DNA of 61,489 bases, from assembly GCF_000315055.1 (NCBI RefSeq), contig NZ_BAER01000006.1, positions 1 to 61,489 on the forward strand, in the 5' to 3' direction. This stretch comes from Paraglaciecola polaris LMG 21857 (GTDB taxonomy: Bacteria > Pseudomonadota > Gammaproteobacteria > Enterobacterales > Alteromonadaceae). The position numbers and the translations under genes were made by a program. Positions 29,334-32,555 of this stretch are shown here, one piece after another; the first letter of the stretch is position 1; the number at the start of each line of letters is the position of its first letter. The notes beneath the pieces are model-generated. The model was not told the origin of the DNA and made no database searches. It was given only the letters and a program-made list of their open reading frames with translations.

Positions 29334-32300
29334 ATGCAAAACCTCGAACTAAACACGCAACTCGACGCGTATTATCAGCAAATTAAGTCTGTCATTTTAG
29401 ACAAACAACACCCTGTGAGCGGCTTGCTGCCAGCTAGCACTGCCATTACTGTGCATGGTAACTATCAAGACGCTTGGGTACGTGACAACGTATACAGCAT
29501 ACTGGCGGTATGGGGCTTAGCTCTAGCGTATCGTAATGTAGATAATGACAATGGTCGAGGCTACGAGTTACAACAACGTACAGTCAAACTGATGCGTGGA
29601 TTGTTGCGCTCAATGATGGCGCAATCAACGAAAGTTGAAGCCTTTAAGAGAACTCGTCAACCCATAGATGCGCTGCATGCAAAATACGATACCGCTACGG
29701 GTGACAGCGTGGTGGGCGATTCTGAATGGGGCCATTTGCAAATTGATGCCACCTCGGTATTTCTGCTGACACTTACCCAAATGATTGCGTCTGGCCTTGA
29801 CGTTATCTGGTCAGACGAAGAAGTATGTTTTGTACAAAACTTGGTGTACTACATCGAGCGAGCGTACCGCACGCCTGATTTTGGTATTTGGGAGCGAGGC
29901 GCTAAAAGTAACAGCGGTAGCGTTGAATTAAACGCCAGCTCGTTGGGCATGGCAAAAGCGGCTCTTGAAGCCTTATCAGGTTTTAACCTTTATGGTGCTA
30001 AGGGCTCCCTTAGTTCGGTGATCCACGTAATCCCAGACAACATTGCCCAATCTAATATCACATTGAGTGCCATGTTACCCAGGGAGTCAAACACCAAAGA
30101 AATTGATGCTGCTTTGCTTAGCGTTATCGGCTTTCCTGCTTTTGCAGTGCAAGATAAAGCATTAGCAGATAAGGTACGTCACGACATTGTGACTAAATTA
30201 GAGGGCCGCTATGGACTGAAGCGCTTCTTACGTGATGGTCATCAAACGGTACTTGAAGATGAAGCAAGATTGCATTACGAAGATAAAGAACTGAAACAGT
30301 TTGAAAACATTGAATCTGAATGGCCGTTATTTTATGCCTACCTGTATTTAGATGCTCTTTTTTCCGATAATAAACCGCAAATTGCCCATTATCGTGACCG
30401 TTTAGATAAGGTTCTTGTAGAACAGAATGGGTTTAAATTACTGCCTGAATTATATTTTGTGCCTAAAGCGTCTATTGACGCGGAACGAGCAGCTCCTCAA
30501 TCACAAGATCGCTTGCCTAATGAGAACGTGCCCTTAGTGTGGGCGCAAAGCCTATTCTTGCTTGGCTCCATGTTACAAGATGGCTTGTTGCGCCCGGGAG
30601 ATTTAGATCCCCTTGGACGCCGTCATGCCAAACCAACCATGAAGCCAGTGGTGCAATTAATATTTATATCAGAAGATGAAACACTACAACAAGAGCTAGC
30701 AGCACATGGCGTGGCCACTGAAACCTTAAGTGATATTGCCCCTGTCAAAGTATATCGCCCAGAAGACATCGCCGCCGTGCACGGACAAGTCGGTCGCTGT
30801 GATAGTTTGGGCCTGACCGGCCGTATACCGCGTATGCTTAAAAGCCTAACCACAAGCCGGGTGTATATGTTTAATAAACAACGAGCTGTGTGTTTAACCC
30901 CCTCTTTTATGCAACACGAGTACTTTTTAAGTTACGACATTGATTTTCTGGTGCGTCGCTTTAAAAGTGAGCTGAGCTATTTACACCGTAATTGGACCGA
31001 AGTAGGCCGCCCCACCGTCACCGTTTTACTGACCCATAATTTACTGGGGGCTGAGCGCAGCTCGTTTTTCGAATTAATGGCTCAAATTGCTACCGGGGAA
31101 GTAGATGATGTACCCGTCAAGCACGGAACAATGGCCCAGCTAACCCCAACTTCTGCTGTGGAGCGGGTTGAGCAATTGAATGATTTAATATTACCAAGTG
31201 AGCCCCTTAGCGAGTTGTTTTCCCATTCATGCACCCTGTCCCTTGCGGGTCATCATATTGCACTGTCATCTGATCAAGAGCGCGAGATAGATGTGTCATC
31301 AGATACAACTGACCTGCTTACCCGTTTAGAAAAATCCGACAACTTGTATCAGCAGATAGCCTTGCTCGCCGCGCTGAGTAAACTGCTGGGTGTAGACTCC
31401 AGGATCAGCTACCAAGGTCAACAGCACACGATTAAAGCATTGATTGAAGAAGTCTATTTGCAAGCAGGTCGCTTGCGCTTATGGTCTGTTTTACGCCATG
31501 CATCGGGCTTATTAGGTAAAGTTGATGGTGATTTAGGGCTCGCAGTCAGTGCGTTACTTGTGGCACAAAAGTTTATTCAAGTTGGCCGCGCTTACAGTGA
31601 TGACTCATTAATATCTAAGACTTTACAAGATGATGAATTACTTGCCAAAATCAGTCAATTCTGCCGCGAAGATGTGCGCGACCAGGTATTAACGCAAGAA
31701 GTACTCTTGTGCTTAGGCATGTTAGTCAAAGCACGACCTAAGCTATTTAGTGAATTGTTGACTGTGCGTGTTAGTTACCTGATTATTTTGCTCACCAGTC
31801 AGATTTCTCGTGAACATCATAAGACGCCAGATGAAGCATACGAACATATTATGAACTTGGCCCCGTCAGATATTCAGGATCAAATTGAAGCTGTGCTTGA
31901 GGAGTACCAAAACTTAACAGACCTTCCCATGAAGCTCGAAGAGCTGCATGCGGAATGCCATTCAGGCAAGCTCGATTGGGATCAAGATCTGGGTTTAGAA
32001 GAGCTGTCAGAACCAACTGAGGGTTGGTACGTTTGGCGACAACATCAAGGTGTTATTGACAGAAGACCTGCCGGTTTTATTCCTCAAGTATGGAGTATTT
32101 TTAAGCATACGACAGGTCTAGTGATTGGTAACAAAATGGATAAACGTAATCGCATAGCCAGCGACATGGTGCTAAGCGATATGACCCAAGGAGAAGCTGC
32201 GTTTGCGCTGCTTATCGAGCAGATGTTGAATAATATTCAGGCACCTGAATATAGACAACTGACGGTTGAAACATTAAGTGCACTGGGCAGGTTTTTCGAA

Positions 32301-32555
32301 CAGAACCCAAGTTTGCAAGTAGACGAAGCGCTGACGATTGATGTCACTATCGGTCATGCTGTTCACCTCGCCTATGGTGAATTACACCCTGAGCGCATAG
32401 CAAATTACTCGGAATTCAAAGGTCAAGCTTGGGACAGTTTTTATAATCGCTCTCCCATGGAAACGACCTTTTTCATTGTATCAGCGCTGCGTAAATTATT
32501 GACTGTGCGCCCCGTTAAAGAGATGGAAGTTGAAATGGATAATGTGGCTTCTTGA
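29334..32555 (+). CDS. phosphorylase kinase alpha/beta-subunit homologue (GH15-like, full length)
   Basis: This 1073-residue soluble protein resembles the regulatory alpha/beta subunits of animal phosphorylase kinase from end to end. Diagnostic blocks include GLLPAS near residue 32, [20 protein letters not shown] near 50, [20 protein letters not shown] near 125, FGIWERG near 185, [20 protein letters not shown] near 200 and the C-terminal [16 protein letters not shown]. The first 420 or so residues form a GH15 (glucoamylase-like) fold, with Glu in IWERG matching the family's general acid. The remainder matches the central and C-terminal regulatory parts. No kinase, calmodulin or phosphorylase gene is adjacent. 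It may be a carbohydrate enzyme or a sensor of glucans. An AGGA site precedes the ATG. Confidence 0.9.
   Translation: [1073 protein letters not shown]

What the first reader, a model, noticed from the sequence alone, without database searches (positions are those of the whole stretch)
29334..32555. Bacterial full-length homologue of animal phosphorylase-kinase alpha/beta subunits
Blocks such as [20 protein letters not shown] and [20 protein letters not shown] are almost those of the animal protein, and the similarity continues to the C-terminal part used in calmodulin and kinase regulation. Bacteria have no known phosphorylase-kinase cascade, and no kinase or phosphorylase gene lies nearby. 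The GH15-like Glu is kept (IWERG). It may be the ancestral stand-alone form: a glucan-active enzyme or sensor that later became a kinase scaffold. I know of GH15-like annotation of such proteins but of no assigned function.
Basis: partly seen in the sequence, partly recalled or inferred. Interest (0 to 1): 0.75.

Follow-up and report, generated by a model that had tools for sequence, protein, structure and literature searches.

The report
Bacterial relative of phosphorylase-kinase subunits
A marine bacterium carries a full-length relative of the large regulatory subunits of animal phosphorylase kinase; in some distant bacteria the same gene sits beside glucose- and glycogen-handling genes, so it may be a glycogen-digesting enzyme that resembles what the animal scaffold was before it joined a kinase.

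Summary
Confirmed: ORF 29334-32555 (+, 1073 aa) matches human phosphorylase kinase (PhK) alpha and beta along nearly its whole length (phmmer E 2.9e-204, 3.2e-172). Residues 601-1073 alone match both (about 1e-30), and an AlphaFold model matches whole PhK chains. Conserved in its genus (20 of 22 genomes), patchy elsewhere: 14 of 369 Gammaproteobacteria, 33 of 146 genomes of a cyanobacterial MAG's phylum.

New here: of 37 loci outside the Alteromonadaceae-type and cyanobacterial groups, 21 have glucokinase, Entner-Doudoroff, phosphorylase, glgA/B/X, malQ or GH13 genes within about 10 kb (0 of 20 control regions); 10 have glucokinase directly downstream. Both GH15 catalytic Glu are invariant in bacterial rows; PhK's kinase-contact residues and CaaX are not kept.

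Best reading: a cytosolic, kinase-independent glucoamylase-type enzyme freeing glucose from glycogen or dextrins. No activity is shown; human alpha keeps both Glu yet tested inactive; the window's locus and most cyanobacterial loci lack the linkage. Human alpha and beta group on the cyanobacteria-rich side of the tree, position unresolved. The family is catalogued; I found no assigned function in the papers searchable here.

The parts
29334..32555 (+). PhK alpha/beta-like protein, 1073 aa (GH15 domain plus KPBB_C)
29334..30623 (+). glucoamylase-like region, residues about 1-430 (D1 of PhK; boundary set by me, approximate)
   Evidence: alignment to alpha/beta
29481..29486 (+). R50-D51 in the WVRDN motif; human beta has Gln for R50. 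The substrate-binding role of this pair in GH15 is recalled, not tested
   Evidence: 79 of 79 bacterial rows with letters there; codons checked
29892..29894 (+). E187 = human alpha E185, catalytic Glu
   Evidence: 79 of 79 bacterial rows with letters there; human residue from PMC10978961
30447..30449 (+). E372 = human alpha E371, second catalytic Glu; Lys in human beta
   Evidence: 80 of 80 bacterial rows
29859..29870 (+). R176, Y178, R179 = three of the four named ADP-pocket residues of PhK beta; the fourth is Q239 here (codon 30048-30050)
   Evidence: conservation about median or below for the domain, Y178 higher
31809..32510 (+). KPBB_C domain, residues 826-1059
   Evidence: Pfam PF19292, E 1.1e-85
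29324..29327 (+). AGGA, likely ribosome-binding site
   Evidence: read from sequence
32617..32643 (+). terminator-like stem-loop after the gene
   Evidence: consensus scan only

Best explanation
The gene encodes a cytosolic, kinase-independent GH15 exo-glucosidase with the body plan of PhK alpha/beta. It most likely removes glucose from the ends of glycogen or of the dextrins left by phosphorylase and debranching; glucokinase then makes glucose-6-phosphate, which enters Entner-Doudoroff or glycolysis. The C-terminal D2-D5 part would serve folding, oligomerisation or regulation. Shown: homology, fold match, intact catalytic pair, no hydrophobic N-terminal segment, gene linkage in part of the relatives, occurrence with glgA. 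Inferred: activity, substrate, role of the C-terminal part, and carry-over to Paraglaciecola, whose locus lacks the linkage.
For: Both catalytic Glu invariant in bacterial rows with letters there (79 of 79; 80 of 80), while human beta lost the second Glu and R50. Glucokinase within about 10 kb in 15 of 37 loci outside the Alteromonadaceae-type and cyanobacterial groups, within 300 bases 3' on the same strand in 10 of 37. L035 gene order: glucan phosphorylase-zwf-pgl-edd-eda-PhK-like-glucokinase. Any seed family in 21 of 37 loci against 0 of 20 control regions (Fisher 7e-6; 4e-5 against the 17 non-cyanobacterial controls); without the 6 loci that gave seeds, 15 of 31 (3e-4 against 17 controls). 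GlgA-type domain in 14 of 14 PhK-like-positive Gammaproteobacteria and 221 of 369 overall (p 6e-4; relatedness not corrected). No 12-residue stretch of mean hydropathy over 1.6 (my threshold) before the GLLPA motif in 79 of 79 rows. Against five congeners dN is 0.06-0.24 with synonymous sites saturated.
Against: Human alpha keeps both Glu, yet PhK holoenzyme and alpha-gamma-delta showed no activity on maltose, isomaltose or glycogen (passage of PMC10978961). Linkage is 1 of 21 in Alteromonadaceae-type loci (L025, GH13 4.6 kb away), 1 of 24 in cyanobacterial loci (glgA 1.9 kb away) and absent in the window, so most of the family's members show none. A phosphorylase gene is close only in L035 and L037 (L043: 8 kb away, other strand), and 6 of 27 PhK-like-bearing genomes have no match to the phosphorylase model TIGR02094. 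Of ten neighbours annotated, four are glucan enzymes (L040, L142, L036, L032); the others are a chemotaxis receptor, an FAD protein, an alpha/beta hydrolase, a mannosyltransferase-like protein, a glutamine synthetase and one with no match. Glucokinase with ED genes occurs as an operon without this gene (recalled), so part of the linkage may be hitch-hiking. Loci are related: 11 of 16 clusters at 55% identity are linked. The AF2 model has pLDDT under 50 at the catalytic loop 185-196 and at 299-310.
Confidence: 0.57

Rival explanations
1. A non-catalytic glucan sensor that binds chain ends through the GH15 pocket and regulates phosphorylase, branching or debranching enzymes by contact, as PhK alpha/beta regulate gamma.
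For: Human alpha has an intact site but no detected activity (PMC10978961); a phosphorylase gene is in the same run in L035 and L037, and glgB/glgX lie within 4 kb on the same strand in L040, L142, L144 and L145; large conserved C-terminal part.
Against: Invariance of both Glu in the bacterial rows is more than binding alone should need; the commonest single neighbour is glucokinase, which uses free glucose.
Confidence: 0.24
2. A GH15 enzyme for another alpha-glucoside (isomaltose, dextran pieces, trehalose or an osmolyte glucoside) rather than glycogen.
For: A weak NCBIfam match to archaeal trehalase TreH1 (E 1.9e-5, 23.5 bits against a cut-off of 820); GH15 is a multi-specificity family (recalled); the window locus has no glg genes.
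Against: Neighbours in several distant lineages are glgA/B/X, malQ and phosphorylase; glgA-type domain in 14 of 14 positives.
Confidence: 0.13
3. Recent transfer from an animal into bacteria.
For: High identity to human alpha (47.5% for the window, up to 55.5% for a cyanobacterial row).
Against: Bacterial rows span several phyla with deep branches and keep the catalytic pair; human alpha plus beta form one clade (92/91) inside or beside bacterial diversity. The family is nearly genus-wide.
Confidence: 0.02

Closest known systems
Phosphorylase b kinase regulatory subunits alpha and beta (PDB 8jfk, 8jfl, 8z5r)
   Same: near full-length sequence homology and fold match, GH15-like D1, KPBB_C; alpha's two catalytic Glu
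   Different: alpha-gamma contact residues not conserved, no CaaX Cys (0 of 80), no Hanks-type kinase match on the contig; shorter linkers than alpha between the matched stretches (query 607-643 against alpha 611-752, and 855-898 against 962-1054)
GH15 glucoamylases
   Same: Pfam GH15 match 2.4e-85, both catalytic Glu; Foldseek also hits a glycosidase (7c25, E 9.2e-06)
   Different: a long C-terminal part whose only PDB sequence matches at E up to 1 are PhK; no hydrophobic N-terminal segment of the kind a secreted enzyme would have
Bacterial members of PF19292 KPBB_C, e.g. in Synechococcus elongatus (control genome)
   Same: same Pfam family; already catalogued
   Different: no function in print that I could find (searches in Tried and rejected); the cyanobacterial loci examined show almost no linkage (1 of 24)

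Membership tests
GH15 | sequence match to the GH15 profile | tested here: met
   287.5 bits against cut-off 22
GH15 | catalytic acid and base Glu | tested here: met
   E187 and E372 align with alpha E185 and E371; invariant in the bacterial rows
GH15 | exo-hydrolysis releasing glucose | not testable with these tools
   needs an enzyme assay
PhK alpha/beta family (protein family) | homology beyond GH15 through the C-terminal KPBB_C | tested here: met
PhK holoenzyme subunit (functional) | contacts to kinase gamma (alpha K588, Y593) | tested here: not met
   Q and E in the window; K in 4 of 80 and Y in 3 of 80 bacterial rows. The hydrophobic D5-gamma contacts were not tested
PhK holoenzyme subunit (functional) | C-terminal CaaX prenylation Cys | tested here: not met
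   0 of 80 bacterial rows have Cys at position -4
PhK holoenzyme subunit (functional) | beta ADP pocket R211, Y213, R214, R274 | tested here: inconclusive
   RYRR in 35 of 80 rows; RYRQ in the window and all 21 of its group; conservation percentiles 53, 71, 57, 35 among D1 columns
PhK holoenzyme subunit (functional) | partner kinase and calmodulin | tested here: inconclusive
   no Hanks-kinase match on the window's contig; five over cut-off elsewhere, partnership untested. Calmodulin was not searched for

The most novel reading that the evidence does not exclude
The bacterial protein is the undivided ancestor type of PhK alpha and beta: a glucoamylase carrying both alpha's active site and beta's ADP pocket, i.e. 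a glycogen-degrading enzyme gated by cell energy state. Eukaryotes took it from a cyanobacterium-like source, duplicated it and split it into alpha (active site kept) and beta (ADP site kept) around a kinase that activates phosphorylase, an enzyme with which the bacterial gene already shares a gene run in some lineages.
Probability: 0.18. Interest if true: 0.85.

Novelty: new variant of a known kind. Interest (0 to 1): 0.6.

Why it matters
PhK was among the first protein kinases found (recalled), and PMC10978961 (passage) still calls the significance of its glucoamylase-like domains open. A bacterial full-length relative with an invariant active site, encoded in several lineages beside glucokinase and in two loci beside a glucan phosphorylase, gives a tractable stand-alone protein on which to ask what that fold does, and suggests that a link to glycogen breakdown may have come before the kinase.

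Tried and rejected
Rejected or unsupported: similarity limited to GH15; a secreted glucoamylase (no hydrophobic N-terminal segment in 79 of 79 rows); a bacterial PhK-like kinase complex is unsupported rather than excluded (two contact residues and CaaX not kept; kinases only on other contigs).

Led nowhere or stayed weak: the ADP-site idea, attractive in cyanobacterial rows (24 of 24 RYRR) but at about median conservation overall and with three of four residues in the window; nesting of human sequences inside cyanobacteria (AU p 0.062, the group being named after the tree was seen; a second AU test in the same call did not finish and was not repeated; unresolved in the 33-row tree); dN/dS could not be given because synonymous sites are saturated (one value, 0.012, for the D1 part against L011); only GlgP itself among the seed families was found in the 20 kb around the genome's own GlgP. 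My greedy ORF caller lost L132 and L140 to antisense ORFs; they are in the linkage count but not in the 80-row alignment.

Selections: the structure alignment used 27 of the 42 sequences then at hand; the trees used 47 and 33 of 82 rows, picked by me; of 33 over-cut-off genomes, 23 were fetched anew, the query MAG is L026, and 9 were not fetched. Control regions were placed by me at set offsets, 17 in non-cyanobacterial and 3 in cyanobacterial genomes.

Literature: searches listed no paper that assigns a function to bacterial PhK alpha/beta-like proteins; I saw titles and starts of abstracts of the listed papers only (20 of 31, 12 of 152, 15 of 239), and only open-licence PMC papers are held. 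PMC10978961, PMC11046441, PMC12892837, PMC10256809, PMC4284466 and PMC4301808 were seen as passages. Pallen 2003 (PMC2323967), Carriere 2008 and Nadeau 2010 (PMC3147251) are not held and were seen only as reference-list entries; they may already mention bacterial homologues.

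Full report
What is there. The window lies in a genome of Paraglaciecola or close kin: the nearest named relatives are Paraglaciecola strains at 90-92% protein identity. ORF 29334-32555 (+) encodes 1073 aa. Pfam gives GH15 (residues 9-814) and KPBB_C, the PhK C-terminal domain (826-1059), both near 1e-85. phmmer against PDB chains gives only two sequences, human PhK alpha (2.9e-204) and beta (3.2e-172). The last 473 residues alone give 1.7e-30 and 8.5e-31. An AlphaFold model from 27 aligned sequences (mean pLDDT 79.9, pTM 0.76) matches whole PhK alpha and beta chains in Foldseek (the eight best rows, E 2.7e-62 to 3.6e-55, TM 0.64-0.69 by query length); then come a glycosidase (7c25, E 9.2e-06) and a 173-residue chain of a PhK entry (8xyb_A, E 4.8e-04; one search lists 8xyb among entries holding alpha). 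The rmsd of 13.8-15.3 suggests that domain orientations differ or are poorly predicted.

Distribution. In the genus, 20 of 22 genomes have a match: 18 near full length, one in three pieces (G001), one a 57-residue fragment (G011). The two genomes of other genera of the family have none, though one search found the gene in Aliiglaciecola and Neptunicella. The one other match (G027, 98 residues with seven stops) looks like chance. PF19292 over cut-off, own or query genome included: 5 of 299 Pseudomonadota, 14 of 369 Gammaproteobacteria, 33 of 146 genomes in the phylum of the Acaryochloris MAG that holds L026, and 1 of 121, the query genome itself, in the phylum of the Sulfuricurvum MAG that holds L035 (one search shows three further Campylobacterota loci). 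The family is already in Pfam, and Synechococcus elongatus is the one of 14 control genomes that rings.

Neighbourhood. In the window the neighbours are PEPCK, a DUF1428 protein, a flavin reductase-like gene, a LysE-type exporter and a two-component system; no seed family is found in the window. In distant lineages it is often different. L035 (Sulfuricurvum MAG) reads: alpha-glucan phosphorylase (TIGR02094, 444.5 bits, cut-off 191.7), zwf, pgl, edd, eda, PhK-like, glucokinase, all in one direction with short gaps or overlaps. By seed matches L033, L032, L047 and L036 have the same ED genes and glucokinase, and L037 has phosphorylase, PhK-like, glucokinase. glgB and glgX lie within 4 kb on the same strand in L040, L142, L144 and L145, and on the other strand in L140; glgA directly precedes the gene in L049; malQ or GH13 genes adjoin it in L142, L032, L040 and L036. 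Six other neighbours annotated are not glucan genes. Counted with seed proteins at E 1e-20 and grouped, 82 loci were examined: 21 of 37 loci outside the next two groups are linked, 20 of them within 300 bases; 1 of 21 Alteromonadaceae-type loci; 1 of 24 cyanobacterial loci; 0 of 20 control regions (17 from non-cyanobacterial genomes, 3 from cyanobacterial ones, at offsets set by me). Seed families were picked after seeing the neighbours, and six loci supplied seeds; without these, 15 of 31 are linked (Fisher 3e-4 against 17 controls). At 55% identity 35 of the 37 loci form 16 clusters: 11 linked, 7 with glucokinase, 4 with glucokinase directly downstream. Some flanks are short (L038, L046, L134, L137, L141), so the linkage counts may be low.

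Co-occurrence. All 14 PhK-like-positive Gammaproteobacteria hold a GlgA-type domain, against 221 of the 369 sampled (hypergeometric p 6e-4; relatedness not corrected). Phosphorylase is less regular: 21 of 27 PhK-like-bearing genomes match TIGR02094 at E 0.001 (9 over its cut-off) and 6 do not match. The window's own genome has a GlgP-like frame of 834 aa on contig C122.

Residues. Human residues are from PMC10978961 (passages). E185 and E371 of alpha correspond to E187 and E372 here. They are invariant in 79 of 79 and 80 of 80 bacterial rows with letters at those columns; human beta keeps the first, has Lys at the second and Gln for R50. Alpha's gamma-contact residues are not kept (K588: K in 4 of 80; Y593: Y in 3 of 80), and no bacterial row has a CaaX Cys. 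The named ADP-pocket residues of beta (R211, Y213, R214, R274) read RYRR in 35 of 80 bacterial rows, all 24 cyanobacterial ones included; RYRQ in the window and all 21 of its group; AYKH in human alpha. This suggests an undivided ancestor, but the four columns stand at percentiles 53, 71, 57 and 35 of the domain's conservation, so I treat it as a lead.

Phylogeny. Over the shared N-terminal part, 47 of 82 rows (IQ-TREE, LG+C20 PMSF): human alpha and beta are one clade (92/91) within a starred set of 19 rows (96/92): 10 cyanobacterial, 6 Alteromonadaceae-type, 1 Abditibacteriaceae and the 2 human rows. A tree with the 17 bacterial rows of that set held apart from the human ones is 19.5 log units worse but not rejected (AU p 0.062). 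Human beta is the longest branch. With alpha only and 33 rows, alpha stays on the cyanobacteria-rich side (90/98), unresolved within. Cyanobacterial rows reach 55.5% identity to human alpha and 48.2% to beta, above alpha-beta identity (42.7%). Bacteria-to-eukaryote descent is thus likely, the donor open. The Alteromonadaceae-type group is sister to cyanobacterial rows (98/85 with L158; 97/92 with L158 and L159), which suggests a transfer of its own.

Mechanism. The simplest account is hydrolytic glycogen or dextrin breakdown in the cytosol: an exo-acting GH15 enzyme frees glucose and glucokinase captures it. Shown: anatomy, catalytic pair, linkage in part of the relatives. Inferred: activity, substrate, regulation, and that the Paraglaciecola copy, without the linkage, does the same. 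The strongest fact against is that human alpha keeps the same pair yet showed no activity in the tests reported.

Verdict. The sequence family is not new, but I found no assigned function or operon description in the papers searchable here (key older papers not held). The linkage evidence turns a curiosity into a directly testable enzyme hypothesis.

Noticed in passing
window 27894-28704 (-): A flavin/ferredoxin reductase-like gene is split into two overlapping ORFs (172 and 128 aa), while L009-L011 have one ORF of 269-275 aa in that cluster: frameshift or assembly error.
   Followed up: partly
window 34120-35422 (-): A Cache-domain histidine kinase reads as two adjacent ORFs (199 and 232 aa), while L011 has one of 464 aa: a second apparent break in this contig.
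   Followed up: partly
L030:13441-16926: In the Abditibacteriaceae MAG a 1161-aa ORF with no Pfam or NCBIfam match at E 0.001 follows the PhK-like gene on the same strand.
   Followed up: partly
G001:C1:4383188-4386373: In one genome of the genus (single contig) the PhK-like gene matches in three overlapping pieces with one TAA: decayed gene or sequence errors.
   Followed up: no
L132 and L140: Long antisense ORFs (1110 and 1122 aa) overlap the PhK-like gene, probably without coding meaning, but they mislead greedy ORF callers.
   Followed up: partly
L042 and L044: In Pseudocolwellia and Colwellia loci two co-directional ORFs (647/656 and 214 aa) directly precede the PhK-like gene in both; not annotated here.
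   Followed up: no
window clade against L158, L159: The Alteromonadaceae-type group is sister to cyanobacterial rows (98/85, 97/92), hinting at a separate transfer into this lineage.
   Followed up: partly
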